The notes: generated by a model from the sequence alone, not told the origin. Shown: positions 6,135 to 24,014, counted from the stretch's first letter. The stretch is 32,898 nucleotides of DNA from a virus (IMGVR_UViG_3300017735_000052:1-32898); one strand, 5' to 3'. Translations and numbers: made by a program.

Positions 6135-6489
6135 GGGGCCGACTATGGCTTTGACAGTTCTGTTGAAGTACCAAGTTCAGGTAATGGGTGATGACCAACA
6201 TCAAAAACCTTAACTGGAGAAGTTGAGTACGCTATGGCAGCCTAATTAGATTAGATGCTAAGCACATCAGGTAGTAGAGTTTAAGAAATTGTTAGTACAC
6301 TACTAGATGTAAAACGAAACAACGTGTATGGCGATGTAGCCAAGTCGAACTGCATCCTCCCGTCCTAGTATATGCGGTGCGATAAAAATATACTTATTTT
6401 TGGAAATGTTAGAAAACATTTATCCTAAACCTGTAAAACGACTTGCTATGAATCTTTACTGGACGAGGGTTCGAAACCCTCCGGCTCCA
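6135..6489 (+). ncRNA. ssrA: tmRNA (ssrA), tag GEVEYAMAA
   Basis: The 5' end GGGGCCG (6135-6141) pairs with CGGCTCC (6482-6488), closing a tRNA-like acceptor stem with discriminator A at 6489. The T-arm is GAGGG-TTCGAAA-CCCTC (6465-6481), and the 5' strand continues with the tmRNA-typical GACTATGGCTTTGACAG. The tag reading frame at 6216-6245 reads GGA GAA GTT GAG TAC GCT ATG GCA GCC TAA, giving GEVEYAMAA. This has the conserved AA-ending degron and the Gly-Glu start I associate with Bacteroidetes tmRNAs. The resume codon is inferred to be GGA. CCA is not encoded (ACAA follows), so it must be added after transcription. At 355 nt the length is normal for a one-piece tmRNA. In infected cells it would tag peptides from stalled ribosomes with help of host SmpB, which is not seen here. 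Confidence 0.93.
6216..6245 (+). other. tmRNA tag-peptide reading frame
   Basis: Nine codons plus TAA encode GEVEYAMAA inside the tmRNA. The YAMAA end fits the ClpXP/ClpAP-type degron consensus. The exact resume codon (GGA at 6216) is inferred from Bacteroidetes tags. Confidence 0.8.
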
Positions 6490-6494
6490 CAATT

Positions 6495-6578
6495 GCTCGG
6501 GTGGTGGAATAGGTAGACACGCAAGACTTAAAATCTTGTTCCCATTTGGGAGTGCGGGTTCGATTCCCGCCCCGAGTA
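6495..6578 (+). tRNA. tRNA-Leu (anticodon UAA)
   Basis: Acceptor stem GCTCGGG/CCCGAGT. The anticodon stem-loop CAAGA-CTTAAAA-TCTTG gives anticodon TAA. A long variable arm (TCCCATTTGGGA) is typical of class II tRNA-Leu, and the T-loop is GTTCGATTC. CCA is not encoded. It starts 5 nt after the tmRNA end, so the RNAs are probably co-transcribed and processed. UUA is a heavily used leucine codon in this AT-rich genome. Confidence 0.95.
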
Positions 6579-6583
6579 CAAAT

Positions 6584-6657
6584 GGACCGGTAGCTCAGCT
6601 GGATAGAGCATCTCCCTTCTAAGGAGACGGTCGAAGGTTCGAATCCTTCCCGGTTCA
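6584..6657 (+). tRNA. tRNA-Arg (anticodon UCU)
   Basis: Acceptor GGACCGG/CCGGTTC, D-arm GCTC...GAGC, anticodon stem-loop TCTCC-CTTCTAA-GGAGA with anticodon TCT, and a T-arm containing GTTCGAATC. CCA is not encoded. It reads AGA, which supplies most arginines in the genes here, so it probably supplements the host pool. Confidence 0.95.
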
Positions 6658-6680
6658 CTAAAACTTTTTTAAAAAAAAGT

Positions 6681-8598: not shown

Positions 8599-8883
8599 AT
8601 GAAAAGTATTTTAAAAGAAGCAGAAGAAATCATTAATAATAGAAGTGAAGAAAAGGAAAGACAATATGGTCCTTTCTCAGAAGGAATGGATAGAGCTGCA
8701 TCTATTTTTAATGGAATGACAGGTTTAGAAGTAACAGGTAAAGAAATGTACATTGCACTTATAGCCCTTAAATTTTCTAGAGAAAGCTATAATCACAAAA
8801 GAGATAATTTGTTAGATGCGGTTGCATATATCGGAGCATTAGATAATTACATAAACGAAAAAGATGAAAACACCAGTAAATGA
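8599..8883 (+). CDS. DUF6378-like protein
   Basis: The 94-aa all-helical protein has ERQYGPFSEGMDRAASIFNGMTGLEVTGKEMYIALIALKFSRESYNHKRDNLLDAVAYIGALDNYI. This resembles DUF6378, small phage proteins whose pattern is RQxxYGxPxENF...W...G...xxDVAxxMxxLKxARxxxxxxxxDxxxDxAGY. These are thought to be related to MazG-like nucleotide enzymes, but no clear metal-binding ExxE is visible. It overlaps the next gene by 20 nt in another frame. Function unknown. Confidence 0.6.
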   Translation: MKSILKEAEEIINNRSEEKERQYGPFSEGMDRAASIFNGMTGLEVTGKEMYIALIALKFSRESYNHKRDNLLDAVAYIGALDNYINEKDENTSK

Positions 8884-9916
8884 TATTTTGGAATTAGGAA
8901 CATGGGCTAAAATTGCAATTGATGATGTTGTAACTACATTTAGTAATAAGAAGGCCTCACATAAATCTGCATGGACATACATGCTAAAAAACCAGTTGAA
9001 CCATGTTGGTTTAAATTGTGATGTCTTAACAAAATCAGATAATGTTCACGACTATGACGCATGGTTTATTGTACTCCCAATGGAATTCCAAGGAAGTTAT
9101 AATCTTTTTGGAGGAGCACAAGATGATACTGCAATGAGAATGCAAAGACTATTAGATTTCAAAGGTCCTATATTTTGTATTAATAGAGAAATGCCAGATA
9201 TTGGTAAATTTGCAGAAAGCAGAATGAAGTCATGTTCTCAAATGTGGTCAGAACTTGATACTAAAAAACTTTCAGAAATTTCAAACAATATAAAAACAAT
9301 AGATCTTACATTAGAATCTGATACTTTTGTATTGGGTGATAGTCACTCAGTTTCAGCATATAAACCTGGAGCAAATATCTCTAGAAATGATGGTAAAACA
9401 CTTTTTGGAGTTCTTAAAGAAGGAATGCAAAATTATATTCCAGAAGGAACAAAGCATCTTATTTCATATTTTGGAAATATAGATGTTAGACACCATCTTG
9501 GTAGACAAAAAGATCCCATGTTTTCAGCAATAACCCTTGCTGAAGATTATATTAAACATCTTGAAACTTTAGATATTCCAAAAATTACAGTTGTTGCTCT
9601 ACTACCAATTGAATATGAAGAGAGAAGAATTCCAAAAACAGGATGGCATAAAGGAACTCCATTTATTGGAACTCAAAAAGCAAGAACAGAAATCATGATA
9701 GCATTTAATCAAGTTGCTAGAAGGCTTTGTGAAGAAAAAGGTTGGGAATTTAAAGAATGGCCAAAACACTGGTACGAGACCCATCCAAAAGAATTTGCAG
9801 ACAAATATATGGAAAAACCAGGAAGTGTTCATCTTTCAAGACAATATTACCACTATGATTTTGACACAGGTGAAGACAATAGTGAATTAAAGCAAAAGAT
9901 TTTTAGTTTATTTTGA
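8864..9916 (+). CDS. SGNH-hydrolase-like protein
   Basis: The C-terminal two thirds shows SGNH features: FVLGDSHSVSAYKPG (GDSHS, the nucleophile block), LISYFGNIDVRHH (the GxND-like block) and a late GSVHLSRQYYH that could supply the catalytic His. The first about 110 residues (YMLKNQLNHVGLNCDVLT...DYDAWFIVLPMEF) look like a separate Rossmann-like domain, as in glycosyltransferase N-terminal halves. SGNH members often remove acyl groups from sugars, but the substrate is unknown and the triad is not certain. It precedes the inositol-phosphate synthase by 48 nt and contains the -35 of that gene's putative promoter at its 3' end. Confidence 0.6.
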   Translation: MKTPVNDILELGTWAKIAIDDVVTTFSNKKASHKSAWTYMLKNQLNHVGLNCDVLTKSDNVHDYDAWFIVLPMEFQGSYNLFGGAQDDTAMRMQRLLDFKGPIFCINREMPDIGKFAESRMKSCSQMWSELDTKKLSEISNNIKTIDLTLESDTFVLGDSHSVSAYKPGANISRNDGKTLFGVLKEGMQNYIPEGTKHLISYFGNIDVRHHLGRQKDPMFSAITLAEDYIKHLETLDIPKITVVALLPIEYEERRIPKTGWHKGTPFIGTQKARTEIMIAFNQVARRLCEEKGWEFKEWPKHWYETHPKEFADKYMEKPGSVHLSRQYYHYDFDTGEDNSELKQKIFSLF

Positions 9917-9942
9917 AACAAAATCAAAAAAGTTAGTATAAA
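9913..9942 (+). promoter_or_regulatory. Putative promoter TTGAAA-N18-TATAAA
   Basis: TTGAAA (9913-9918) and TATAAA (9937-9942) are 18 nt apart, upstream of the inositol synthase. The same element (TTGAAACAAAA... and TATAAT, also N18) lies before the clamp at 20721-20750. A T4-type late box TATAAATA overlaps at 9944-9951. The duplication supports a real promoter; the temporal class is inferred to be early or middle. Confidence 0.5.
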
Positions 9943-9964
9943 GTATAAATAATAAAAATAAATT

Positions 9965-11200
9965 ATGAGCAAAAGTAACAAAATTAAAGTTGGTATTATT
10001 GGTGTAGGAAATTGCGCCAAGTCCCTAGTAGAAGGAGTACAATATTACTCTGAAAAGCAGACTTCAGCAAATGGCATGATGCGAGAAGATATTGGAGGCT
10101 ATAAAGCTGAAAATATCGAATTTGTATGTGGTTTTGATATTGATGAAAGAAAAGTAAATACTCCTCTTGGAGAAGCATTAAAGCAGCGTCCAAATAGCGC
10201 TTATGATATTGTTGAAAAAATCAATTCAAAAGCGCCAGTATATGAAGCACCTGTTATTGATGGTTATGCACTTCTTATGGACTCTTATCCAGAAAAAGAC
10301 AGATTTTTAGTTTCAGAAAAACTACGAAATAGTTCTGAAATGAATAGAACTTCTTGGACAAAATCTAAAGAACAAGAATGGAAAGAAAGAATCATCAACT
10401 ATGTAAATAAACATGAAGTTGAAGTATTAATTAACTATCTTCCTGTAGGTTCTCAAAAAGCAACAGAATTTTGGGCAGAAGTTTGTCTAGCAACTGGAGT
10501 AAGTTTTGTAAATTGTATTCCTGTATTTATTGCTTCTAACCCAACATGGGAAAAGAGATTTATTGATGCTGGAATTCCAATCGTTGGAGATGATATGAGA
10601 AGCCAATTTGGTGCATCTATTCTATCACAAATGTTACAAGAACTTGCATTTGAAAGAGGACATGATGTTAAGGCACATATCCAAAGAAATGTTGGTGGTA
10701 ATACTGACTTCTTGAATATGGAAGATAAAGGAAGACTACAATCTAAGAAAATCTCTAAAGAGAACGTTATTAGAGCACAGAACGATATTAGAGGAATCTC
10801 AACAGAAGATAGTTTCTTACATGCAGGTCCTTCTGAATATATTGCATATTATGGTGATAATAAAGTAGCAAACTTTAGATTAGAACTTGAAGGATTTGGA
10901 GGAGCTCCCGTTTTATTCGATGCTCAACTATCTGTTCAAGACAGTCCAAACTCAGCAGGAGTTGTAATTGACGCATTAAGATATGTAAGAGTTGCAAGAG
11001 AAATGGGAATCGTTGGAGCCTTAAGAGGTCCATCAGCATTCACTCAAAAAACTCCACCAAAGCAAATGATGTTTGCAGATGCTGTTCAAGAATGTGAAGC
11101 TTTAGCAAATAGAAAATTAACACCTACTACTAAAAAGCAGGTTGTTGCTAATAAAGTATCGCAAATAAGAGCTGAAAAAGCAAAAGTTTCTAAAAACTAA
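9965..11200 (+). CDS. ino1: myo-inositol-1-phosphate synthase
   Basis: This enzyme converts glucose-6-phosphate to inositol-1-phosphate using NAD. Visible family motifs are the dinucleotide-binding VGIIGVGNCAKSLVEG (9-24), VLINYLPVGSQKATEFWAE (154-172), FVNCIPVFIASNP (181-193), GIPIVGDDMRSQFGAS (203-218), NVGGNTDFLNM (242-252), SKKIS (260-264) and the C-terminal DSPNSAGVVIDALRY (326-340). At 411 aa it is slightly longer than compact bacterial/archaeal enzymes, with extra length around residues 110-145. All core motifs are present, so it is probably active. The HAD-like phosphatase gene follows 3 nt later and could release free inositol. As a phage auxiliary gene it may feed lipid, glycan or DNA modification. 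Confidence 0.93.
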   Translation: MSKSNKIKVGIIGVGNCAKSLVEGVQYYSEKQTSANGMMREDIGGYKAENIEFVCGFDIDERKVNTPLGEALKQRPNSAYDIVEKINSKAPVYEAPVIDGYALLMDSYPEKDRFLVSEKLRNSSEMNRTSWTKSKEQEWKERIINYVNKHEVEVLINYLPVGSQKATEFWAEVCLATGVSFVNCIPVFIASNPTWEKRFIDAGIPIVGDDMRSQFGASILSQMLQELAFERGHDVKAHIQRNVGGNTDFLNMEDKGRLQSKKISKENVIRAQNDIRGISTEDSFLHAGPSEYIAYYGDNKVANFRLELEGFGGAPVLFDAQLSVQDSPNSAGVVIDALRYVRVAREMGIVGALRGPSAFTQKTPPKQMMFADAVQECEALANRKLTPTTKKQVVANKVSQIRAEKAKVSKN

Positions 11201-11203
11201 AAA

Positions 11204-11668
11204 ATGTATAAAATGAGTTTTAAATTTCTAAGAAAATTACTTCAAGGTGTGTCTAACAATGACCTTAAAATTGAAGATGAGTATTACGCAAATAAACACA
11301 TGGTAAAATACGCTTATGATTTTGACGGAGTTATTTCAATCGGAATAACTCCTCGAAGTTCACAAGATTTTATTATTACTGGTAGGTGTATAGACGAGAA
11401 AGATGAAGTTATGGAAGTATTAAAGGAACGTGGAATTACGAATCCTATATACTTTAACCCAATGACTTTAGAGCAGCGTGGAAACCATACACTTAAAGCG
11501 AGAAGATTTTCTGGAACTCATAAAGCAAAAACTTTAGAAAGGTTAAAAAATGATGGATATGAAATCGTTAGATTTTTTGAAGACGATCCAGTTCAGCTTA
11601 AAATTATCAAAACATCTCATCCAAAATTAGATGTAGTTCATATTAAATCAGATCTAGTACAAAAATAA
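11204..11668 (+). CDS. HAD-like phosphatase
   Basis: The core has YAYDFDGVISIG (about residues 36-47; DxDGV nucleophile motif I), DFIITGRC (about 54-61; motif II region), HKAKTLERLK (motif III lysine region) and RFFEDDPVQLKII (acidic motif IV). The arrangement fits a small capless HAD hydrolase, about 154 aa. The gene begins 3 nt after the inositol-phosphate synthase and 5 nt before the FkbM methyltransferase, so an inositol-1-phosphate phosphatase role is attractive. That is inference from neighbours; a nucleotide or DNA 3'-phosphatase is equally possible by fold. Confidence 0.7.
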   Translation: MYKMSFKFLRKLLQGVSNNDLKIEDEYYANKHMVKYAYDFDGVISIGITPRSSQDFIITGRCIDEKDEVMEVLKERGITNPIYFNPMTLEQRGNHTLKARRFSGTHKAKTLERLKNDGYEIVRFFEDDPVQLKIIKTSHPKLDVVHIKSDLVQK

Positions 11669-11673
11669 AAATT

Positions 11674-12348
11674 ATGGCACTTAACACATTACAAAGAAAC
11701 TTAAGAAAAGAATACGTAAAATACTTAAACGCTACCGAAGATGTAGATAGAAGTATGATAACAGACTGTATCAAGCACTATCAAATTCCAGAAGTAGATT
11801 ATAGAGATAAAATATGTCTCGATCTTGGTGGTAATGTTGGCGGTTTTGCTAAATTAGCAGTAGATAGCGGTGCATATAGAGTATATACTGTTGAATGTGA
11901 TTCTAGAAACTTTTTGAAAATGCAAACAAGTTTTCAAAATGAAGACAAAGTAAATGTTATTCACGGTGCGGTATCTGGAAGCAGAGCAGATTCACTTGAT
12001 ATCTATAAAGGACAGAGCAAATCAAATCACTGTTCAACCTCAATTATTAAAAGAACTGGTAGATATCAAAATTATGAAAATGTTAAAAACTTAAACATCA
12101 AAGACCTTTTACATATATGCAAACCAGATATTGTAAAAATTGATGTTGAAGGAGCAGAATATGAATTGATAGAAGATGTTTTAAATTATCATCCAGATTT
12201 CTTGTTTATAGAATTGCACATGGGTAAAATGAAAGATTTGGCACAGCCTACTCTAGATAGATTAGACGCTTTATATTCAAGTAGTAGCGTAGAACCTGTA
12301 ATTGTTTTTCAAAGCGTAGCAGGATATGACTGCTGGTACAAAAAATAA
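11674..12348 (+). CDS. FkbM-family SAM methyltransferase
   Basis: The class I methyltransferase fold is clear. KICLDLGGNVGGFAKLAVDSG (from about residue 45) is the SAM-binding loop, RVYTVECDSRNF supplies the ribose-binding Glu, and DIVKIDVEGAEYELIEDVL (about 152-170) is the diagnostic FkbM motif. FkbM enzymes usually O-methylate hydroxyls of sugars or polyketides. Here the neighbours make an inositol-derived or glycan acceptor plausible, though not shown. It sits 5 nt after the HAD gene and 6 nt before the putative base-modification enzyme, inside one operon. Full length at 224 aa, with no anomalies. Confidence 0.88.
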   Translation: MALNTLQRNLRKEYVKYLNATEDVDRSMITDCIKHYQIPEVDYRDKICLDLGGNVGGFAKLAVDSGAYRVYTVECDSRNFLKMQTSFQNEDKVNVIHGAVSGSRADSLDIYKGQSKSNHCSTSIIKRTGRYQNYENVKNLNIKDLLHICKPDIVKIDVEGAEYELIEDVLNYHPDFLFIELHMGKMKDLAQPTLDRLDALYSSSSVEPVIVFQSVAGYDCWYKK

Positions 12349-12354
12349 AAATAT

Positions 12355-13395
12355 ATGATAGACCAAGTTAATATGGAAGTAGTCAAAGATGTTGGTTACT
12401 TTTTTAATAAAGTTAATGAGAGAGCTCTTTGGCAGCTCGGTATAAATGAAACCTATAATAGCGGCGGAAATGCCGCTTTAGGGGAAACTGTAGAATACTT
12501 TCATCCTCAATTAACTTTAGATGATAGGATGAGGTATATCATGGAGAACATCGTTTATTCAGGTTTGGATATTGATAACATTATATGCAACACTATCATC
12601 TCTCACTTTTATGGAGGTAGAGGAATTCATCAGATTTTAACTAGAGAAAGAGACCCTAAAAAAGCATTAGTAGATTTTAAAAGATTGGCAGTTGACAAAG
12701 ATTATGAAAACTCAATCCGTAAAAATCTAGAAGATGCTGTAGAATTAGGCCTGCCTATTTATGGAACTACTGAATTAAGAACAAGTTTATTCGGAGCAGC
12801 AAATACTTATGTCGCTGAATCTAGAAATCAAGAACGAGATGCACATAAAATCAATATTTTATTATGGGTAGCAAGTTTTATAACTAGAGGAATAACAGGG
12901 AGAATGGCTGGTGTAAAATCACTTAAAGAGATGTATGATATTATCACAAGCATTGAAGGTGTAGGACAGTATTACGGTTATCACTGCTCAACGTCTAACT
13001 CTGTAAATCCAGCAATTGATATAAATCATGATGAAAGATTTTGTGTACCAGGACCTGGTGCTAGACTTACTTTAGATATTATGTTTGGTGAAGGCTGTAA
13101 AATTCCTTATGGAGATAGAGTAATTTGGTTTAGAGAAAACTATAAAGACCTTATTGGCGAAATCTATCTTCACCCATCAACACATAATGTCGTTGTCAAT
13201 GGAAATCGAGTTCTTGCCGAAGAGCAAAATGATTTAAAGGTTTATGGATGCGAAGTTGGCTTATGTCAATATGGAGTTTACCATAGACTTAGAAATAACC
13301 CACATTTAATTAATAGAAGAAAAGTTGCCAGGGCAGATGGGGCATTAATGGAATCTTTTTTTAATAATAATTATCAACAACAAACTCTTTTCTAG
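12355..13395 (+). CDS. Putative DNA thymine hypermodification enzyme (aGPT-PPlase/ADDT-like)
   Basis: The 346-aa protein has a helical domain ending SIEGVGQYYGYHCSTSNSVNP followed by DERFCVPGPGARLTLDIMF (about residues 200-243). This resembles the helical, glycosylase-like domain of 5-hydroxymethyl-dU DNA kinases and alpha-glutamyl/putrescinyl-thymine pyrophosphorylases (amino-acid:DNA transferases). Other features are FYGGRGIHQIL and an ELRTSLFGAANTYV segment. These families replace the pyrophosphate on hmdU in phage DNA with another group. I rank this as a likely distant relative rather than a firm assignment. No hmdU-forming enzyme is in the window. Last gene of the inositol/FkbM operon, and it ends at a late promoter. 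Confidence 0.45.
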   Translation: MIDQVNMEVVKDVGYFFNKVNERALWQLGINETYNSGGNAALGETVEYFHPQLTLDDRMRYIMENIVYSGLDIDNIICNTIISHFYGGRGIHQILTRERDPKKALVDFKRLAVDKDYENSIRKNLEDAVELGLPIYGTTELRTSLFGAANTYVAESRNQERDAHKINILLWVASFITRGITGRMAGVKSLKEMYDIITSIEGVGQYYGYHCSTSNSVNPAIDINHDERFCVPGPGARLTLDIMFGEGCKIPYGDRVIWFRENYKDLIGEIYLHPSTHNVVVNGNRVLAEEQNDLKVYGCEVGLCQYGVYHRLRNNPHLINRRKVARADGALMESFFNNNYQQQTLF

Positions 13396-14926: not shown

Positions 14927-16333
14927 ATGATATTAGACATTGAACAAAAAGAAAACGAAGTAATTATCAGCTACTATGATAAAGAAGGTAAGGTCGCCTT
15001 TAAAAGATACCCAATAGACAAATTTGAAAATTGGGTGGTAACACATGAAAAAGACAAACACAAAGACAAACAATTGACAAATTGGGATGGCAGACCTATT
15101 AAAAAGATTACTTCAAAAAGAGGGTTCAATAAATTTAGTTTAGTATATTTCATAGAAAGCTTGCCCAAAAAGGACCAAGAAGAACTTCTAGAAGCAAATA
15201 GCCCTAGAACCTATTTCGTAGATATTGAAACTGAAATAGTAGATGGCTTCCCAAAAGCAGAAGATGCTAAAACAAGAATACTTAATTTCTCTATCATTAC
15301 ACCAGAAAAGAAAGCAATTGTACTCGGAATAAAAGACCTTGATATGAAAGGTATTCAAGAAGATACTAATGATTATTTTAAGTCATTAGATTCTGATTGG
15401 TCAATATCTTATTATAAGTTCGATAATGAGTACGACATGGTATATAATTTCATCCATAAATTTATGCCTAAGTTTCCAATGATGTCAGGATGGAACTTTA
15501 TTAATTATGACTGGAAATACATAGTCAACAGATGTAAAAGACTTCAAATTGATATTAGTGAAATGTCAGTTACTGGTAAAGTAGACCGAGTAGATGGTAG
15601 ACCACTCCACATGGGAATTCTTGATTACATGCAGTTATATGATAAGTATGATAAGTCTGTAAAAGTTAGAGAATCAAATGCTCTTGATTTCGTTTCAGGT
15701 CAGATTGTGGGTCTTAAAAAGATTAAATACAATGGTGGCTTACAGGAACTTTACGAAAATGATTATAGAAAATATGTATACTATAACATAGTCGATTCAA
15801 TCTTGGTATATTATATAGACCAGAAAATAAAGTCAATGGATGTTCTTTTAACATTGGCAAATATTACAAAAATGCCCTTATATAAAGCAGCAAGTCCAGT
15901 TGCAATGACTGAAGCACTGATGGCTAGAAAATTAATGGATCAAAATAAGAGAATTGGAACAGAAAGAAAAGAAGATGTTCTTAAAGAAGGTAAATATGCA
16001 GGAGCATTTGTTAAAGAGCCAATTTCAGGTTTCTATTCTGGTGTAAGTGCATTTGACTTTGCATCTCTGTATCCTTCAATTATGCGACAATTTAATATTT
16101 CACCAGATTCATATATTGAGCAGATTCCAAAAGAGCAAGTATCAGAACGTAGAAAAGATAAAAACGTAATTGTTTGTGAAAATGGAGTAGTTTATAAAAA
16201 TGAACCGTCTGTATTGAAACAGATACAGAGTGACTTATATAGTCAAAGAAAGGAATATAAGGCTAAAGCTTATGAATATTTTGAGAAGGCGGCAGCAGTT
16301 CAAAAAAAAATTAATTTAAAAAAGAACCCATAA
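14927..16333 (+). CDS. 43: DNA polymerase B, N-terminal half (exonuclease and palm motif A)
   Basis: This is the first half of a T4 gp43-type family B polymerase, 468 aa. The 3'-5' exonuclease motifs are visible: YFVDIETEI (D99, E101), GWNFINYDWKYI (D195) and YYNIVDSILVYYI (D290). The first polymerase motif, SAFDFASLYPSIMRQFNISP (about 374-393, D377), is intact. The protein then enters the fingers (DLYSQRKEYKAKAYEYFEKAAAVQKKINLKKNP) and stops. The motifs B and C needed for catalysis are in a separate gene at 21518, about 5.2 kb downstream. No intein residues (terminal HN, +1 Cys/Ser/Thr) are seen, so the halves are expected to assemble without splicing. The stop is followed by the odd intergenic region 16334-16480. 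Confidence 0.92.
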   Translation: MILDIEQKENEVIISYYDKEGKVAFKRYPIDKFENWVVTHEKDKHKDKQLTNWDGRPIKKITSKRGFNKFSLVYFIESLPKKDQEELLEANSPRTYFVDIETEIVDGFPKAEDAKTRILNFSIITPEKKAIVLGIKDLDMKGIQEDTNDYFKSLDSDWSISYYKFDNEYDMVYNFIHKFMPKFPMMSGWNFINYDWKYIVNRCKRLQIDISEMSVTGKVDRVDGRPLHMGILDYMQLYDKYDKSVKVRESNALDFVSGQIVGLKKIKYNGGLQELYENDYRKYVYYNIVDSILVYYIDQKIKSMDVLLTLANITKMPLYKAASPVAMTEALMARKLMDQNKRIGTERKEDVLKEGKYAGAFVKEPISGFYSGVSAFDFASLYPSIMRQFNISPDSYIEQIPKEQVSERRKDKNVIVCENGVVYKNEPSVLKQIQSDLYSQRKEYKAKAYEYFEKAAAVQKKINLKKNP

Positions 16334-16348
16334 TTAATTTGATGTGTG

Positions 16349-16356
16349 ATATATAA
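16349..16356 (+). promoter_or_regulatory. Late-promoter-like ATATATAA at the polymerase break site
   Basis: GATATATAAC lies 16 nt after the stop of the polymerase N-half and only 27 nt before a terminator, so a transcript from here would be very short unless it reads through to nrdB at 16481. It may be the remnant of a lost gene. Confidence 0.4.
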
Positions 16357-16382
16357 CTCATCTAACAAACAAACTTACAATC

Positions 16383-16404
16383 AAAGGTCTATCGACCTTT
16401 TTTT
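16383..16404 (+). terminator. Intrinsic terminator 1 before nrdB
   Basis: Perfect 7-bp stem AAAGGTC/GACCTTT (16383-16389 with 16394-16400), TATC loop and seven T residues. Confidence 0.9.
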
Positions 16405-16414
16405 GGACAAATAA

Positions 16415-16452
16415 GGCAATATATGCTATTAATACGCTATTGTCTTTTTTTT
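16415..16452 (+). terminator. Intrinsic terminator 2 before nrdB
   Basis: Stem GGCAATA/TATTGTC (16415-16421 with 16438-16444, one G-U) with a 16-nt loop, followed by eight T residues. It lies 11 nt after terminator 1, so the two form a tandem terminator. Confidence 0.7.
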
Positions 16453-16480
16453 AGAAATTAACTAAAATTATTTTAAAAAT

Positions 16481-17479
16481 ATGAACTTATTTAAAGAAAG
16501 AATAGAATATAAACCATTTGAATATCCTGAATACTATAATGAAGGCTGGTTACCCCAGGCTCAAGCATTTTGGTTACATACTGAAATTCCAATGCAGAGT
16601 GATGTTAAAGATTGGAAAGAGAATTTAACTGCAGCTGAAAGAAATTTAGTTGGTAATATTCTTTTAGGTTTTGCACAGACTGAATGTGCAGTATCTGATT
16701 ATTGGACTACAATGGTCACGCATTGGTTTCCAAAACATGAGATAAAACAAATGGCAATGATATTTGGTAGTCAAGAAACTATTCATGCTACTGCATATTC
16801 TTATTTAAACGAAACATTAGGACTAGATAATTTTGCTGCATTTCTACACGAACCTACAATTGCTAAAAAGTTTGAACACCTTTCAAGCGTAGATGCTAAT
16901 TGGAGCCATGAAGATATTGCTACAAATGAAACTGCAAGGAATCAAGTAGCAAGAAGTTTGGCAATATTCTCAGCTTTTGCAGAAGGAGTATCTCTTTATA
17001 GTTCATTTGCAGTTTTATATAGTTTTCAAATGAGAAACTTATTAAAAGGAATTGGACAACAAATGAAGTGGTCAGTTAGAGATGAGTCTCTTCACTCTAA
17101 AATGGGTTGTAGATTATTTAATCACATGTGTGAAGAATACCCTGATTTAAGATCTGAGAATAAAGAGCATGTAATAGAAGCTGCTAAATTAATGGTAGAA
17201 ATGGAATTGGACTTTATTGATAAAATGTTTGAGTTAGGAGATTTAGAAAATCTTAAAAAAGAAGACTTAAAAAACTTTATTAAAAGAAGAGCAAACGAAA
17301 AATTAGCAGAGATTGGATATGAAACAGTATTTGAATTTGATGCAATTAGTGCAAAAGAACTAGATTGGTTCTATCATTTAACAGGAGGAGTAGAACATGC
17401 AGATTTCTTTGCAATTAGACCAACTGCTTATTCTAAAGCAGGTGAAGATGAGGTATGGGATGAAGAGGATTTATTCTAA
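16481..17479 (+). CDS. nrdB: Ribonucleotide reductase class I, beta subunit
   Basis: NrdB holds the di-iron/tyrosyl-radical cofactor that starts reduction of ribonucleotides in NrdA. Candidate ligands are E68 (FAQTECAVSDYW), E99 and H102 (SQETIHATAYSYL), E168 (FAEGVSLYSSF) and E202/H205 (RDESLHSKMG), with Y106 in the E-x-x-H-x-x-x-Y position of the radical tyrosine. The first ligand is Glu, where E. coli NrdB has Asp84. The C-terminus ends in acidic DEVWDEEDLF, the usual type of tail for docking to NrdA. At 332 aa it is a normal, compact beta chain. nrdA follows 23 nt later. The gene lies between the two polymerase halves. Confidence 0.95.
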   Translation: MNLFKERIEYKPFEYPEYYNEGWLPQAQAFWLHTEIPMQSDVKDWKENLTAAERNLVGNILLGFAQTECAVSDYWTTMVTHWFPKHEIKQMAMIFGSQETIHATAYSYLNETLGLDNFAAFLHEPTIAKKFEHLSSVDANWSHEDIATNETARNQVARSLAIFSAFAEGVSLYSSFAVLYSFQMRNLLKGIGQQMKWSVRDESLHSKMGCRLFNHMCEEYPDLRSENKEHVIEAAKLMVEMELDFIDKMFELGDLENLKKEDLKNFIKRRANEKLAEIGYETVFEFDAISAKELDWFYHLTGGVEHADFFAIRPTAYSKAGEDEVWDEEDLF

Positions 17480-17502
17480 TAAATAAACTATAATTTAATA
17501 AA

Positions 17503-19389
17503 ATGCAAAAACAAAAAGAATCTTTTAAAAAAGAACTAGATAAAAAAACTGAATTAATATCTAGACAGACTAAAACCGATATTATAGTTTCTCAATTAGG
17601 TTGGGAAAAAGGAGTCGATTATCCTGTATGGGGACATACTGAAATCTATGTCAAGACCATATCAAATGGATATTTATTAGAAGGTGAAACCCCGAAAGAT
17701 GCGTATTGGAGAGTATCTACCACAATTGCAAGAAGACTTAAAAAACCTGAAATGGCTAGTAAGTTTTTTGATTATATTTGGAAAGGCTGGTTAAATTTAG
17801 CCTCTCCTGTTTTGTCAAATACTGGAACAGAAAGAGGACTTCCTATTTCATGTTTTGGAATTGATGTTGCTGATTCAATCCATGATATTGGTAAAAAGAA
17901 CTTAGAAATGATGCTACTTGCCAAAAATGGAGGTGGAGTAGGAATTGGAGTAAATCAAATAAGACCAGCAGGCGCAGATATTACAGATAACGGTACTTCA
18001 GATGGTGTAGTTCCATTTTGTAAAATATACGATTCTACAATTCTTGCTACAAATCAAGGAGCAGTAAGAAGAGGAGCAGCATCTGTAAATATAGACATTG
18101 AACATAAAGATTTTTGGGATTGGTTAGAAATTAGAGAACCAAAGGGAGATGTAAATAGACAATGCCTTAATGTTCAACAATGCGTTGTAATTCCCGATGA
18201 CTTTATGGATAAAGTAGACAATGGTGATAAAGAATCTAGAAAAAGATATGCTGCTGTAGTTAAAAAACGTAAAGCAACTGGTCAGCCTTTTATGATGTAT
18301 AAAGGAAATATTAACAGAGCAAACCCAGAGGCTTATGTTAAAAATGGCCTTAAAGTTTATATGACTAACATTTGTAGCGAAATCGCATTGCATACTGATG
18401 AAAATCACAGTTTTGTATGTTGTTTAAGTTCTTTGAATTTAGCAAAATATGATGAGTGGAAACACACAGACGTTATTCAAACTGCAACTTGGTTTCTTGA
18501 TGGAGTTTTAGAAGAATTTATACAAAAGTCAAAATTTAGACAAGGATTTGAAAACGCAATTCGTTCTGCTGAAAAAGGTAGAGCATTGGGTCTTGGAGTT
18601 CTTGGATGGCATACATATTTACAAGAAAGAGGAATTCCATTCGAAGGGTTAGCAGCTCAATTTGAAACCCGAAAAATATTTAGTCAAATACAAATTGAAA
18701 GCGAAACAGCAAGTAGACAATTAGCAGAAGAATTTGGCGAACCTCTTTGGTGTGCTGGAACTGGAATGAGAAATACTCATTTAAGAGCTGTGGCACCAAC
18801 TGTAACCAATTCAAAACTTAGTGGAAATGTAAGTCCAGGAATAGAACCATGGGCCGCTAATGTATTTACAGAACAGACTGCAAAAGGAACCTTTATTAGA
18901 AAAAATCAGTCTCTTGTTAAATTCTTACAAAAGATAGGACATGATACTTCTCAAGTTTGGTCTAAAATTCTAGAAGACCATGGAAGTATTCAAGATGTTG
19001 GTGTATTAGATAATTATATGATGACATCTGGAGTTCATGTAGATTCTGAAAATTTTGAAGTATTAACATTAAAGCAATATAATTCTTTGTCAGATAACAT
19101 CAAAAAGGATATGTTCGTTTCACCTAAGGAAGTATTTAAAACCTTTAAAGAAATCAATCAGTTGGAATTAGTAAGACAGGCAGGAGTTAGACAGCAATAT
19201 ATCGATCAGTCAGTTAGTCTTAATTTGGCATTTCCAAATACAGCATCTCCTAAATTTATTAATAAAGTACATTTAGAAGCATACAAGCAGGGAATCAAGA
19301 CTCTTTATTATATGAGAACCGAATCAGTATTAAGAGGAGATATCGCGGCATCAGCAACTGATGAAGCTTGTTTAAGCTGCGACGGATAA
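17503..19389 (+). CDS. nrdA: Ribonucleotide reductase class I, alpha subunit, no ATP-cone
   Basis: NrdA reduces ribonucleoside diphosphates. Visible are LASPVLSNTG with SCFG (C117 of the redox pair), the active-site TNICSEI (N289, C291, E293), FVCCLSSLNL (C306/C307, partner cysteine), the radical-path TLYYMRTES (two tyrosines) and the C-terminal EACLSCDG (C623, C626, re-reduced by thioredoxin/glutaredoxin). The chain is 628 aa against about 750-800 for full NrdA, and begins directly with the ten-stranded barrel region. The N-terminal ATP-cone that lets dATP shut off the enzyme is absent. The phage enzyme may therefore not be inhibited by dATP. It ends before a hairpin-rich region and terminator. 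Confidence 0.95.
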   Translation: MQKQKESFKKELDKKTELISRQTKTDIIVSQLGWEKGVDYPVWGHTEIYVKTISNGYLLEGETPKDAYWRVSTTIARRLKKPEMASKFFDYIWKGWLNLASPVLSNTGTERGLPISCFGIDVADSIHDIGKKNLEMMLLAKNGGGVGIGVNQIRPAGADITDNGTSDGVVPFCKIYDSTILATNQGAVRRGAASVNIDIEHKDFWDWLEIREPKGDVNRQCLNVQQCVVIPDDFMDKVDNGDKESRKRYAAVVKKRKATGQPFMMYKGNINRANPEAYVKNGLKVYMTNICSEIALHTDENHSFVCCLSSLNLAKYDEWKHTDVIQTATWFLDGVLEEFIQKSKFRQGFENAIRSAEKGRALGLGVLGWHTYLQERGIPFEGLAAQFETRKIFSQIQIESETASRQLAEEFGEPLWCAGTGMRNTHLRAVAPTVTNSKLSGNVSPGIEPWAANVFTEQTAKGTFIRKNQSLVKFLQKIGHDTSQVWSKILEDHGSIQDVGVLDNYMMTSGVHVDSENFEVLTLKQYNSLSDNIKKDMFVSPKEVFKTFKEINQLELVRQAGVRQQYIDQSVSLNLAFPNTASPKFINKVHLEAYKQGIKTLYYMRTESVLRGDIAASATDEACLSCDG

Positions 19390-19394
19390 AATAT

Positions 19395-19473
19395 GCGACT
19401 CTTTGGAGTCGCCATTAGGACCGTTATAGTTACGGAACAAAAGGGAAGAGTATCGCTACGCTTCCCTTTTTTT
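19395..19473 (+). terminator. Three-hairpin region ending in a terminator after nrdA
   Basis: Hairpin 1 is perfect: GCGACTC-TTTG-GAGTCGC (19395-19412). Hairpin 2 is CCGT/ACGG (19421-19435). Hairpin 3 is AAGGGAAG/CTTCCCTT (19441-19448 with 19461-19468), extended by A-T pairs and followed by a T-tract, a strong terminator. The first two hairpins are more than a simple terminator needs and may be a 3'-UTR-derived small RNA or a stability element. Confidence 0.8.
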
Positions 19474-19478
19474 GATAG

Positions 19479-19486
19479 ATATATAA
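19479..19486 (+). promoter_or_regulatory. Late-promoter-like ATATATAA
   Basis: GATATATAAAC sits directly after the nrdA terminator and 25 nt before the ATG of the capsid-targeted-type gene at 19512. One of the clearest copies of the motif. Confidence 0.6.
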
Positions 19487-19511
19487 ACCATATTAAAAAA
19501 AATAAAATACA

Positions 19512-20714
19512 ATGATACTTAACTACGGAGAATTCTTAAACGAAAAAGAATGGGCAGTTACAGATGCTAAAATTCTTAAAACAAGAAGGACTTTTTATGC
19601 TGAAGCATTTACTCAATTTTTAAATGAAGATGAGTTGACAGAGGCTAACAATTTAATAAATGAAGGACTTTTTGATGAGTTTGGTTTTAGCAAAATAGAA
19701 AGACTAAATGAAAACGAACTTTATGAAAGTCTTATATTAGAATGGAATCTTTTACAAAAATTAAAAGATAAAGCTAAGGATGCTGTTGAAGTTGTAAAAG
19801 ACAAGGGTAAAAAAGCCCTTTCAAAAATACAACAAGGGGTAGTTGCTATAGGCGGTAAAATCGCAGGTCTTATTAAGAAAATAGTAGAGAGTATAAAAAG
19901 TGTTGCTAAAAAAGCAATAGAGGGCGCAAAAAAAGTCGCAGAAGCCGCCAAAAAGAAAATGACTGAAGCGTTTACTAAAGAACTTAATACTTTTAAAAGT
20001 GAAAATGAAAAGGTAAAATCAGAAAAAATAAAATCTATCACAAAAGATACTGCCAATGCTAAAAAAGTTGGTGGCCATGTTATAAAATGGTGTACTGGTG
20101 ATTTAGCAAAAGAAACAGCAACTGCAATCACTAAAGGTGCTAAAGAAGAGGTACCTGGTACTAAACCTATGAAAGAAAGTTTTAGTTATAGAAGTTTTGA
20201 ATTAATGATGGAAAATTCATTATATTTAAGCTGTACAGAAGCTATGAAATCTGGAGAGCTGAAATTATCAGAAGTAGAAGAACAGCTTAATATGCTAAAA
20301 GAAGGAGGAGGCCAAACGGCTCACAAACTTCCATTTATTTCAACAATAACAAAATTTATTAACAAATTCCCACCTTTCAGCATTTTAAAAATGTATAAAG
20401 AAAAAAGTGCTGAAGTAGCAGGAGGCATGATGGCTGTATTTTCAGACAAGGCAACAAAGGTAATGGGAGCTCCAGGACCTTTTAAATTTATGGCGATAGC
20501 TGCTTTTATAGGAATAGCATTTGAGCTAGCAATAAAAGATGCGGTGAAAACGTTAACCGCAAGTTTGCTTTTTCCACCCGCTGCACCCTTTATAACAATG
20601 GCATTTAACTTTGCCTATGTTTTAGTAGCTGTTGCCGCATTAGAAGTAGTGGTAGGAACGGTAATGGACCGTAGAGATGACGCAAAGGACAAAGAAGAAC
20701 CTAAAGAAGCATAA
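19512..20714 (+). CDS. Capsid-targeted-type protein with basic amphipathic helix and membrane-like C-terminus
   Basis: MILNYGEFLNEKEWAV has the leader at residues 5-11. Further candidate prohead-protease sites (hydrophobic-N-E) follow at FTQFLNE (E39), NLINE (E51) and RLNE (E67). Residues about 82-160 form a Lys/Ala-rich amphipathic helix (KDKAKDAVEVVKDKGKKALSK, KKAIEGAKKVAEAAKKK) like histone-H1 or LEA-type repeats. The C-terminal about 70 residues contain hydrophobic stretches (FMAIAAFIGIAFELAI; FITMAFNFAYVLVAVAALEVVVG) that could cross a membrane. No enzyme domain is seen. With its own late-type promoter, it looks like a packaged protein that binds DNA in the head or enters the host membrane on ejection. 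The role is inferred. Confidence 0.85.
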   Translation: MILNYGEFLNEKEWAVTDAKILKTRRTFYAEAFTQFLNEDELTEANNLINEGLFDEFGFSKIERLNENELYESLILEWNLLQKLKDKAKDAVEVVKDKGKKALSKIQQGVVAIGGKIAGLIKKIVESIKSVAKKAIEGAKKVAEAAKKKMTEAFTKELNTFKSENEKVKSEKIKSITKDTANAKKVGGHVIKWCTGDLAKETATAITKGAKEEVPGTKPMKESFSYRSFELMMENSLYLSCTEAMKSGELKLSEVEEQLNMLKEGGGQTAHKLPFISTITKFINKFPPFSILKMYKEKSAEVAGGMMAVFSDKATKVMGAPGPFKFMAIAAFIGIAFELAIKDAVKTLTASLLFPPAAPFITMAFNFAYVLVAVAALEVVVGTVMDRRDDAKDKEEPKEA

Positions 20715-20720
20715 CTATTT

Positions 20721-20750
20721 TTGAAACAAAACACTAATTTATGATATAAT
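20721..20750 (+). promoter_or_regulatory. Putative promoter TTGAAA-N18-TATAAT
   Basis: TTGAAA (20721-20726) and TATAAT (20745-20750) are separated by 18 nt, upstream of the sliding clamp. It shares TTTGAAACAAAA and its spacing with 9913-9942. It would drive the clamp, the polymerase C-half and the recombination genes. This is the best match to a sigma70-type promoter in the window. Confidence 0.55.
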
Positions 20751-20773
20751 TAACAAATAAAAATTATATCGAA

Positions 20774-21517
20774 ATGAAATTAGAAATTGACAAAATTGAC
20801 CAGCATGCTTTTATTAGCTTTATTAATCGATTAAAATTAATCGACTCTTTTATTTATTTTAAAATAAAAGATAATCAAGTTATTTCAACATGTTATTTAC
20901 CACAAAGAGATGCTGTAAAACATCATTCAGTATCAGTAGACGTATTATTTGGCGGAGCTACAACTCCTGATAATTCCAAAGAGTATAAAATAGCATTCTT
21001 TGATGCAAACAGAATTATTGATGCATTTAAGCAATTCGAACATGACTCTATCCGTTGTGAAATTGAATTTATCCAAAACGAACAAGACTTCGTAGCTTCT
21101 ACTTTTAAAATCTTTAATGATGAATTAGAAATTACACTTGCATGTTCAGAGCCTTCTCTTGGTTACCAAGATTTAACTACTGAGCAGATAGAAGGTATCT
21201 TCGAAAGAAGCCAAATGGACTTCCAATTCCCAATTGACAATCACTCAATCAACAGATTGAAATCTTTGTTTAATTTAGAGAAAGAAGAGACATTTGATAT
21301 TAACTCAAATGGAACTGGAGTACAAGTTAAAGGTAAAACGTTTAATGTTGTAATTAGTCAAAGCGCAACTGGAGATGGTACTGCAACTCTTTATAAAAAA
21401 TACTTGGCTCTTCTAGACAAAGAAGAATATAATGTACATGTATCAAATAATAAAGTTGTATTTGATTCAACTGAGTCAGAAACTCTTTTAACAATTTCAA
21501 CATGTAAAACTGCCTAA
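20774..21517 (+). CDS. 45: DNA sliding clamp (gp45-like)
   Basis: The 247-aa protein is close to the length of T4 gp45 (228 aa). Its alternating strand pattern (FIYFKIKDNQVISTCYLPQRDAV; KEYKIAFFDANRIIDAFKQF; FDINSNGTGVQVKGKTFNVVIS; YNVHVSNNKVVFDSTESETLLTIS) fits two clamp domains. FDANRIIDAFKQFE resembles the clamp helix and loop of T4-type trimeric clamps. It would tether the polymerase and, in T4-like biology, also activate late transcription with gp55. The stop is immediately followed by the ATG of the polymerase C-half, with no gap. Sequence identity to T4 is low, so the call rests on pattern and context. Confidence 0.75.
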   Translation: MKLEIDKIDQHAFISFINRLKLIDSFIYFKIKDNQVISTCYLPQRDAVKHHSVSVDVLFGGATTPDNSKEYKIAFFDANRIIDAFKQFEHDSIRCEIEFIQNEQDFVASTFKIFNDELEITLACSEPSLGYQDLTTEQIEGIFERSQMDFQFPIDNHSINRLKSLFNLEKEETFDINSNGTGVQVKGKTFNVVISQSATGDGTATLYKKYLALLDKEEYNVHVSNNKVVFDSTESETLLTISTCKTA

Positions 21518-22723
21518 ATGGAAGAAGTAATTGAGGCGGTAGATTATGACAGCATGACTGTCGAAGAGTTAGAACAGTTACAGAAAGAATATACTGTACT
21601 TGCTAATAAATACACTGCATTTGAGCAGTCAGTTAAATTATCACTTAACAGTATTTATGGTGCATTTGGTAACAAGTGGTTTCACTTCTTCGACATTCAA
21701 ATGGCTGAATCAATTACACTTCAAGGTCAAGATGCAATCCTTTACTCCGAAAGTATTCTAAACAAATACTTTACGGAGTTTTGGCATAAGGATTTAAAAT
21801 TACATGAAAGACTAGGTATAAAAGTAAAAAATAAACTTGTAAAACCTTCAGTAATTTATATTGACACTGATAGTAATTATGTTCAGTTCGGTGAAATGTA
21901 TGAATCCATTGAATGGTTAGATGAATCTAAAAAACTAGACGTAACCACGTTTACATTAGAAGTATACAATCTTAGAATCAAAGACTATATTTCAATGGCA
22001 ATGCAAAAATATGCTAAAGAAAGAAACACTGATAACTTCTTAATGTTTGAGTTAGAATCAGTAGCATATTCTGGTATTTTTATGACTAAGAAAAAATACA
22101 TACAAGATGTATCATGGGATGATAAACTTCCTGTAAATGAAAGACACCCTTCTCTTAAAAAAGTAAAAACCGTAGGATATGATACAATTCAAAGTTCTAC
22201 TCCATTATTTGCTAGAAAGAAATTAACTGAAGCATTGACTTTACTTTTTAGTAAAGGTGTTACACCTGGTCCTAATGAATTACAAGAAATTGTATCATTC
22301 ATGAAAGAATGTAAAAAAGAATTTAAACTGGTAGATTTAGATGATATTTGCTTTAATAGAAAAACAAATAACATACATAAGTATATAATAGATGACCACA
22401 AAGAATTTCAGATAGGTCTTAAATGCCCTCCAAATGTGAAGGCTGCCGGGTTTTATAATTATTTAATGAATAACAACCCAAAATACAAAAACAAATATAA
22501 AATGATAGCAAATGGTGAAAAGCTTAGAATCTATAATACTAAGCATCCTATATGCGACACATTTGCTTATTTACCAGGAGACCATCCCTATGAAATAGCT
22601 CCAGAAATAGACTATGATACACAATTTGAAAAATGTATGATTGACCCTATAAACAGAGTATTAAGAGCAACTGGCCTGCAAGAATTAGATACTAATTTAA
22701 TTTATGCATCGGCTTTATTCTAA
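21518..22723 (+). CDS. 43: DNA polymerase B, C-terminal half (motifs B and C, thumb)
   Basis: This 401-aa protein supplies the rest of the polymerase begun at 14927. It starts with a fingers helix (DYDSMTVEELEQLQKEYTVLANKYTAFEQS), then motif B KLSLNSIYGAFGNKWF (K40, N44, Y47, G48) and motif C VIYIDTDSNYV (D116, D118). The palm/thumb follows with FMTKKKYIQDV (the KKKY motif). The last residues, NLIYASALF, are an aromatic/hydrophobic tail like the clamp-binding C-termini of gp43-type enzymes. The Met start replaces the fingers tip, so the break lies between motifs A and B. It directly abuts the clamp gene, which suggests coupled translation. Neither half alone has all three catalytic motifs. 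Confidence 0.93.
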   Translation: MEEVIEAVDYDSMTVEELEQLQKEYTVLANKYTAFEQSVKLSLNSIYGAFGNKWFHFFDIQMAESITLQGQDAILYSESILNKYFTEFWHKDLKLHERLGIKVKNKLVKPSVIYIDTDSNYVQFGEMYESIEWLDESKKLDVTTFTLEVYNLRIKDYISMAMQKYAKERNTDNFLMFELESVAYSGIFMTKKKYIQDVSWDDKLPVNERHPSLKKVKTVGYDTIQSSTPLFARKKLTEALTLLFSKGVTPGPNELQEIVSFMKECKKEFKLVDLDDICFNRKTNNIHKYIIDDHKEFQIGLKCPPNVKAAGFYNYLMNNNPKYKNKYKMIANGEKLRIYNTKHPICDTFAYLPGDHPYEIAPEIDYDTQFEKCMIDPINRVLRATGLQELDTNLIYASALF

Positions 22724-22907: not shown

Positions 22908-24014
22908 ATGGCAAAGAAAAAAGAATTTAGTTTTAATGACTTAAACGCAGAATTAGCAGATATAAACCCATTAGGGTCCGTTATGTCAGAAAGTGATTTT
23001 AGCGAGGTAACAGAATATATCGATACTGGCAACTATCACCTTAATGCATGCGTAAGTGGTTCACTTTTTGGTGGATGGCCAAACAGCCGAACTTGCGCAC
23101 TTGCTGGACCTTCAGGTACTGGTAAAACTTATCTTATTTTAAATAGTGTTAAAAGGGCAATAGACATGGGTTACAGCGTCGTCTTCTATGACTCTGAAGC
23201 GGCTGTTGATAGACAATTAATGAAAAAGTTTGGAATTGATGTGAGTAAAGTCAATTATCAACCGATTAATACTGTTCAGGCATTTAGACATTCAGTAACT
23301 ACAATTACTACAAAGATGCAAGAAGTCAAAGCGGCTGGTGGAGAAGTTCCAAAGTTAATGATTATTCTTGATAGTGCTGGTAACTTGGCAACTCAAAAAG
23401 AAATTAATGATGCTGTTTCTGGAAGCGAAAAAGCAGATATGACAAGAGCAAAAATTCTTAAATCAATTTTTAGAATTATAATGACTCCATTGGCAGATTT
23501 GAAAATTCCTTTCTTATTCACAAACCACACATATATGTCGCAAGGTTTTATTGCGCAACAAATTGCAGGTGGTGGAACTGGACCAGAATACGCAGCTTCA
23601 ATTGTTCTTTTCTTAAATAAAGCACAATTAAAAGAAGGTACTGAAAAAACAGGAATTATTGTTACAGCAAAACCAAATAAGAACAGATTTGCAAAACCAA
23701 CCCCAATCAAATTTCACTTACACTTTACAAAAGGAATGAATAGATATGTAGGTCTAGAGCAATATGCAACTTGGGATATTTGTGGAGTAGCAAGAGGAAC
23801 TATTGTAAAAGGCGAAAAAGTACCTAAAGAAACAGCTAGAACTTGGATATGTGATCACTTAGATACTGCAGTTTCAAATGCTGACTTTTTTACTGAAAAA
23901 GTTTTTACAAAAGAAGTTTTAGAAAAAATCAATACTCATATTCAACCGATATTTAACTATAGCGATATGGTACAGGATATAAATGTTGATGAAATCTTAG
24001 AAGAAGCAGAATAA
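22908..24014 (+). CDS. uvsX: UvsX RecA-like recombinase
   Basis: The 368-aa protein shows Walker A GPSGTGKT (67-74), the RecA-type strand SVVFYDSEAAV (90-100; catalytic-type Glu98), Walker B LMIILDSAGNL (150-160) and the DNA-binding loop region around FTNHTYMSQGFIAQQIAGGGTGPEY. Length is close to T4 UvsX (about 390 aa). It forms filaments on single-stranded DNA and drives strand exchange in recombination-dependent replication, working with the gp41 helicase and gp46/47 nuclease encoded just downstream. Its stop overlaps the next start by one base (TAATG). Confidence 0.95.
   Translation: MAKKKEFSFNDLNAELADINPLGSVMSESDFSEVTEYIDTGNYHLNACVSGSLFGGWPNSRTCALAGPSGTGKTYLILNSVKRAIDMGYSVVFYDSEAAVDRQLMKKFGIDVSKVNYQPINTVQAFRHSVTTITTKMQEVKAAGGEVPKLMIILDSAGNLATQKEINDAVSGSEKADMTRAKILKSIFRIIMTPLADLKIPFLFTNHTYMSQGFIAQQIAGGGTGPEYAASIVLFLNKAQLKEGTEKTGIIVTAKPNKNRFAKPTPIKFHLHFTKGMNRYVGLEQYATWDICGVARGTIVKGEKVPKETARTWICDHLDTAVSNADFFTEKVFTKEVLEKINTHIQPIFNYSDMVQDINVDEILEEAE

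What the first reader, a model, noticed from the sequence alone, without database searches (positions are those of the whole stretch)
14927..22723. DNA polymerase split in the fingers, with about 5.2 kb of genes between the halves
The N-half (14927-16333) has the exonuclease and motif A (DFASLYPS), and the C-half (21518-22723) has motifs B (KLSLNSIYG) and C (YIDTDS). Neither has all catalytic residues. The break lies at the outer part of the fingers, a structurally tolerant spot. nrdB, nrdA, a capsid-targeted-type gene and the clamp now lie between the halves. No homing endonuclease or intein is visible, unlike known T4-like split gene 43 cases caused by mobile elements.
Basis: partly seen in the sequence, partly recalled or inferred. 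Interest (0 to 1): 0.85.

Follow-up and report, generated by a model that had tools for sequence, protein, structure and literature searches.

The report
Two-gene fingertip-split T4-type DNA polymerase
This phage makes its T4-type DNA copying enzyme from two separate genes that break the protein at the tip of one lobe; the split is real, but the same break is already known in other phages and is inherited by a large group of related marine and gut phages, so it is an elegant but not a new kind of thing.

Summary
The family B DNA polymerase (T4 gp43 type) is encoded by two complementary genes: 14927-16333 (exonuclease, motif A, first fingers helix) and 21518-22723 (second fingers helix, motifs B and C, thumb), with 5.2 kb between. 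They join at T4 residue 506 and about 518-529, the fingertip. The T4 catalytic residues checked are all present in one half or the other and invariant in 39 deduplicated relatives. It is not damage or misassembly: all 130 IMG/VR loci carrying both halves are split with the same gene order, both halves have dN/dS near 0.05, and 14 relatives of 101-205 kb hold no intact PolB. The split is old: Lak, PAU, MA9V-1, PTm1, pT24 and huge phages LR7565xx share the break point; in Lak the halves lie 222 kb apart on opposite strands. Aeromonas 44RR/Aes123 break at the same place, by independent origin (AU p 4e-35); for Aeromonas phage 25 the halves co-purify and polymerise (review PMC2988022). Best explanation: two chains assemble non-covalently into an ordinary gp43; neither end has room for an intein and no intron was found. 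A new member of a known kind. The 'clamp' and 'capsid-targeted' labels are unproven.

The parts
14927..16333 (+). polN: N-terminal half of gp43-type PolB (N-terminal domain, 3'-5' exonuclease, palm motif A, first fingers helix), 468 aa
   Evidence: Pfam PF03104, PF00136; phrog_2062 1.9e-81; PDB RB69 gp43 E 2.8e-34; Foldseek RB69 gp43 E 9e-20
15221..15235 (+). Exo I motif DIETE; D99/E101 = T4 D112/E114
   Evidence: mapping; invariant
16055..16078 (+). Motif A DFASLYPS; D377 = T4 D408 (metal ligand)
   Evidence: mapping; invariant
16211..16324 (+). C-terminal helix of polN (residues 429-466), first fingers helix; the chain ends at T4 residue 506
   Evidence: AF2 model; alignment
16383..16404 (+). 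terminator-like hairpin and T run after polN
   Evidence: also in 18 of 39 relatives, 0 of 390 shuffles, 6 of 312 coding windows; consensus match only
16481..17479 (+). nrdB between the halves
   Evidence: Pfam PF00268 1.1e-59
17503..19389 (+). nrdA between the halves
   Evidence: Pfam PF02867 2.9e-89
   Evidence: only weak matches; the slot between nrdA and the next gene is variable in relatives
20774..21517 (+). conserved polC-linked gene, candidate sliding clamp (unproven)
   Evidence: same family just 5' of polC in LR756500, pT24, MA9V-1, PAU; no match to known clamps
21518..22723 (+). polC: C-terminal half of gp43-type PolB (second fingers helix, palm motifs B and C, thumb), 401 aa; start codon abuts the stop of the preceding gene
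   Evidence: PF00136; phrog_1918 5e-66; RB69/T4 gp43 in PDB
21560..21676 (+). long N-terminal helix of polC (residues 15-53) covering the second fingers helix
   Evidence: AF2 (low confidence); alignment
21635..21661 (+). Motif B KLSLNSIYG; K40/N44/Y47 = T4 K557/N561/Y564
   Evidence: mapping; invariant
21857..21874 (+). Motif C YIDTDS; D116/D118 = T4 D618/D620 (metal ligand)
   Evidence: mapping; invariant
22908..24014 (+). uvsX-like recombinase downstream of polC (in P-SSM2 gene 43 is followed by uvsX and 41)
   Evidence: phrog_97 1.6e-58; P-SSM2 order

Best explanation
An obligate two-subunit replicative DNA polymerase of the T4 gp43 type. polN and polC are expressed as separate proteins (separate stop and start codons, a terminator-like hairpin after polN, and 5.2 kb between). 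They fold together by restoring the antiparallel fingers hairpin, one helix from each chain, which brings motif A (D377) beside motif C (D116/D118) in a shared palm. The result works as an ordinary proofreading PolB. Shown: the two complementary halves, the break site, conservation of catalytic residues, purifying selection, clade-wide fixation, correlated divergence, and relatives with halves far apart. Inferred: non-covalent assembly and activity, by analogy with Aeromonas phage 25 gp43A/gp43B.
For: Halves meet at 497|498 of phrog_262 and at T4 506 | about 518-529. Catalytic residues invariant in 39 deduplicated pairs. 130/130 loci split in the same order, gap 3.6-6.0 kb. dN/dS median 0.049 and 0.042 over 25 pairs. 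No intact PolB in 14 relatives. N-C distance correlation 0.915, above polN with clamp candidate, uvsX, nrdB (0.835, 0.798, 0.755) and not below the within-chain correlations (0.78, 0.82). In Lak the halves are about 222 kb apart on opposite strands, so a shared primary transcript is ruled out there. AF2 puts the last polN helix (429-466) at the chain end. Precedent: the split 43A and 43B products of phage 25 co-purify and polymerise (PMC2988022).
Against: No biochemical evidence for this pair; no complex prediction could be run; the C-half alone is predicted poorly (pLDDT 62), which fits a need for its partner but may only reflect a shallow alignment. The window is a fragment, so its own genome is not fully checked, and the completeness of the 14 relatives is not given. 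Correlation of distances also reflects shared descent of linked genes.
Confidence: 0.88

Rival explanations
1. The halves are joined after transcription or translation, by trans-splicing RNA or a split intein.
For: Relatives carry inteins in the C-half at motif C (Lak, LR756500, PTm1) and Aes123 is annotated with N- and C-intein parts, so splicing elements do visit this gene.
Against: polN ends only a few residues after the fingers helix and polC has only about 14 residues before its first long helix, too short for intein halves. No Rfam intron in the window. The inteins in relatives sit at motif C, not at the fingertip.
Confidence: 0.03
2. The halves do separate jobs: polN as a stand-alone exonuclease or regulator, polC as something else, with DNA replicated by another polymerase.
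For: Long relatives hold a further small protein matching the PolB exonuclease region (about 240-265 aa), and some jumbo phages carry a second polymerase (PMC7824862).
Against: Metal ligands D377 and D116/D118 are invariant but on different chains; the halves diverge in step; no other PolB was found in the 14 relatives. Other polymerase families were not searched.
Confidence: 0.05
3. Decaying pseudogene, assembly error or frameshift artefact.
For: The window is a single fragmentary metagenomic contig.
Against: 130 loci with the same order; dN/dS about 0.05; isolates PAU, MA9V-1, PTm1 and pT24 are split too.
Confidence: 0.01
4. About origin only, compatible with the best explanation: a homing element or its remains created the break in the common ancestor and was lost, leaving RNR and other genes to move in.
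For: PTm1 has a DUF7487 protein in the gap and an annotated VSR endonuclease in the C-half; an HNH-like ORF, judged by eye, lies in the gap of L082; Aes123 carries a putative VSR endonuclease in the C-half.
Against: No endonuclease recognised in the gap of the window or of most relatives (by homology to known window genes and by eye); 44RR is split without any gene in between.
Confidence: 0.4

Closest known systems
Aeromonas phage 44RR2.8t / 25 / Aes123 gp43A + gp43B (Petrov, Ratnayaka and Karam 2010, as cited in PMC2988022)
   Same: Family B gp43 broken at the fingertip; N-half with exonuclease and motif A, C-half with motifs B and C; break maps to the same place in 44RR and Aes123; phage 25 halves reported to co-purify and polymerise
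   Different: Independent origin (AU p 4e-35); halves adjacent or separated by a short untranslated stretch or mobile element, not by unrelated metabolic genes
Split PolB of Bacteroidota phages PAU, MA9V-1, PTm1, pT24
   Same: Same clade (100/100), same break point, N-half first; same gene family just 5' of the C-half in PAU, MA9V-1 and pT24
   Different: Other genes in the gap, gaps of about 1.2-2.4 kb; the PTm1 C-half is also broken by an intein
Lak and other huge phages (MK250019, LR756500, LR756502, LR756504; N-half of LR756501)
   Same: Same break point, homologous halves; LR756500 is the nearest to the window (48% and 45% identity)
   Different: Halves far apart except in LR756500, in Lak on opposite strands; intein-like sequence at motif C in Lak and LR756500
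Rhodothermus phage RM378
   Same: PolB in two distant genes
   Different: Broken between exonuclease and palm (111-336 and 379-726 of phrog_262), not in the fingers
Pseudomonas phage MIJ3 split PolB (PMC6892783)
   Same: Split jumbo-phage PolB
   Different: The paper reports a split intein and an HNH endonuclease between the parts

Membership tests
T4-type (gp43) family B DNA polymerase | PolB exonuclease and polymerase domains homologous to T4/RB69 gp43 | tested here: met
T4-type (gp43) family B DNA polymerase | Exonuclease catalytic acids D112, E114, D219, D324 (T4 numbering) | tested here: met
   D99, E101, D195, D290
T4-type (gp43) family B DNA polymerase | Motif A, B and C residues (T4 D408, K557, N561, Y564, D618, D620) | tested here: met
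   Split over two chains
T4-type (gp43) family B DNA polymerase | Single polypeptide (usual, not required: the Aeromonas gp43A/B pairs are exceptions) | tested here: not met
   Two genes 5.2 kb apart
Fingertip-split gp43 (gp43A/gp43B type) | Break between the two fingers helices | tested here: met
   T4 506 | about 518-529; same place as 44RR and Aes123
Fingertip-split gp43 (gp43A/gp43B type) | Common descent with the Aeromonas split (needed for one family by descent, not for the kind) | tested here: not met
   AU p 4e-35
Fingertip-split gp43 (gp43A/gp43B type) | Halves associate and polymerise | not testable with these tools
   Needs co-purification and assay
Split intein / trans-spliced gene | Intein halves or intron at the ends | tested here: not met
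   Ends too short; no Rfam intron
gp45 sliding clamp (for 20774-21517) | Homology to known phage clamps | tested here: inconclusive
   No PDB, Pfam or PHROG match to a clamp; hhalign with a single gp45 (44RR) probability 0.4%; no PF02916 elsewhere in relatives

The most novel reading that the evidence does not exclude
A replicase that has been a stable heterodimer since the ancestor of a large phage group, in which translation of the C-half is tied to the gene before it (perhaps the clamp) and the N-half is made from its own transcript, so that polymerase assembly is itself a control point; and the fingertip break, reached at least twice independently, is a site where splitting is favoured rather than merely tolerated.
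Probability: 0.12. Interest if true: 0.6.

Novelty: new member of a known kind. Interest (0 to 1): 0.4.

Why it matters
It shows that a replicative polymerase split through its fingers is not a rare accident but the fixed state of a broad phage group that includes Lak, and it gives many natural pairs for testing how two chains build one PolB active site. I found no paper in the library searched that describes the trait across the group, but most subscription papers are not held.

Tried and rejected
Search for intact relatives of the MaF61 polymerase in IMG/VR gave none. Placement of intact MaF61 inside or outside the split clade is unresolved (AU p 0.305), so one gain versus later re-fusion is open. 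AF2 of the C-half alone was of low confidence. Clamp identity was tried by profile search, hhalign with 44RR gp45 and PF02916 in relatives, all negative. A first, stricter terminator scan missed the hairpin after polN; a looser one, set after seeing the hairpin, found it; the scan tool's own list lacks it. Literature searches for a published group-wide split gave none. Rejected: frameshift or assembly artefact, intein or intron joining.

Full report
Observation. The window is a whole 32,898-base IMG/VR record. Two ORFs, 14927-16333 (468 aa) and 21518-22723 (401 aa), are complementary parts of a family B DNA polymerase. Against the intact PHROG family 262 they meet at 497|498, and each has its own PHROG family (2062 and 1918), so split polymerases of this sort were already in that library.

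Where the break lies. Alignment with T4-type polymerases puts the end of polN at T4 residue 506 and the start of the well-aligned part of polC at about 529, with some 11 residues before it. Exonuclease residues D99, E101, D195, D290 correspond to T4 D112, E114, D219, D324; D377 to D408; in polC K40, N44, Y47, D116, D118 correspond to K557, N561, Y564, D618, D620. All are invariant in 39 deduplicated pairs. AlphaFold2 makes residues 429-466 of polN one helix that ends the chain (mean pLDDT 71), and Foldseek matches RB69 gp43. The polC model is weak (pLDDT 62). That the stretch T4 470-570 is the fingers, with its tip near 505-530, is established knowledge of RB69/T4 gp43 and was not computed here.

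Is it real and selected? All 130 IMG/VR loci that carry both halves are split, with the order polN-nrdB-nrdA-(variable)-clamp candidate-polC and a gap of 3.6-6.0 kb. In 12 of these the nrdB in the same slot is a divergent version of about 30% identity. dN/dS is about 0.05 for both halves. In 14 relatives of 101-205 kb the only polymerase-domain matches are the two halves. Distances of polN and polC correlate at 0.915, against 0.835, 0.798 and 0.755 for polN with the clamp candidate, uvsX and nrdB, and against 0.78 and 0.82 within chains. These values rest on 29 related taxa and are descriptive.

How old is it? The break is shared by LR756500, LR756502, LR756504, Lak-A2, PAU, MA9V-1, PTm1 and pT24; for LR756501 the N-half was read and a C-half located about 620 kb away in record coordinates. 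In Lak-A2 the halves lie about 222 kb apart on opposite strands, and in LR756504 about 281 kb apart. In a tree of joined halves and intact enzymes these form one side of a 100/100 branch together with the intact MaF61. One origin excluding MaF61 is not rejected (p 0.305), while a common origin with the Aeromonas split is (p 4e-35). So the fingertip was split at least twice. RM378 is split elsewhere, between exonuclease and palm.

Neighbours. The gene just before polC belongs to the same family in LR756500 (E 3e-66), pT24 (2e-6), MA9V-1 (4e-6) and PAU (2e-5), where it also lies just before polC. Its stop abuts the start of polC in the window, which suggests translational coupling (inference). 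A clamp is a fair guess from position but nothing shows it. After polC come uvsX and a DnaB-type helicase, the order seen after gene 43 in P-SSM2, so polC probably keeps the ancestral site and polN or the intervening genes moved; this last step is inference.

Mechanism. There is no room for intein halves at either end, no Rfam intron, and a terminator-like hairpin follows polN, also in 18 of 39 relatives. Together with unlinked halves in Lak this argues for two proteins that assemble. The review of T4 mobile elements reports that 43A and 43B of Aeromonas phage 25 co-purify and have polymerase activity (PMC2988022); I did not read the primary paper.

Origin of the break. But PTm1 has a DUF7487 protein in the gap and an annotated VSR endonuclease within its C-half, L082 has an HNH-like ORF in the gap, and Lak-A2, LR756500 and PTm1 carry intein-like sequence at motif C. 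A mobile element may have made the first break; this cannot be decided here.

Verdict. The split is real, functional by inference, ancient in its group, and a new member of a known kind. The interest lies in its breadth, its repeated origin at the same site and the wide separation of the halves, not in a new mechanism.

Noticed in passing
window 6135-6658: A tmRNA gene (Rfam 85 bits, tag GEVEYAMAA) followed by tRNA-Leu and tRNA-Arg; none of 42 scanned relative loci showed a tmRNA, one (L102) shows the two tRNAs, though it begins too near them to hold the tmRNA.
   Followed up: partly
window 16481-19389 and relatives such as L130, L145, L146: The nrdB-nrdA cassette between the polymerase halves is replaced in place by a divergent version (about 30-38% identity) in some relatives while the two halves keep their common history.
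   Followed up: partly
window 19512-20714; relatives e.g. L030:8358-9093, L114:15005-15412: The slot between nrdA and the next gene is variable and often holds genes with a common N-terminus such as MKHVKLFEQFVNE, perhaps a capsid-targeting signal.
   Followed up: no
L082:7125-8066: An ORF with HNH-like sequence, by eye, lies between the polymerase halves of this relative.
   Followed up: no
L164 (LR756500) and L173 (Lak-A2): C-halves of the polymerase are further interrupted at motif C (DTDS) by intein-like sequence ending in VHNS or AHNS.
   Followed up: partly
records G001-G005, G007, G010, G011, G014: A separate protein of about 240-265 aa weakly matches the PolB exonuclease region, perhaps a stand-alone exonuclease.
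   Followed up: no
window 8864-13395: Genes matching phrog_13881, phrog_33138, a polynucleotide kinase-like protein, a methyltransferase and a 5-hmdU DNA kinase helical domain suggest modified DNA bases.
   Followed up: no
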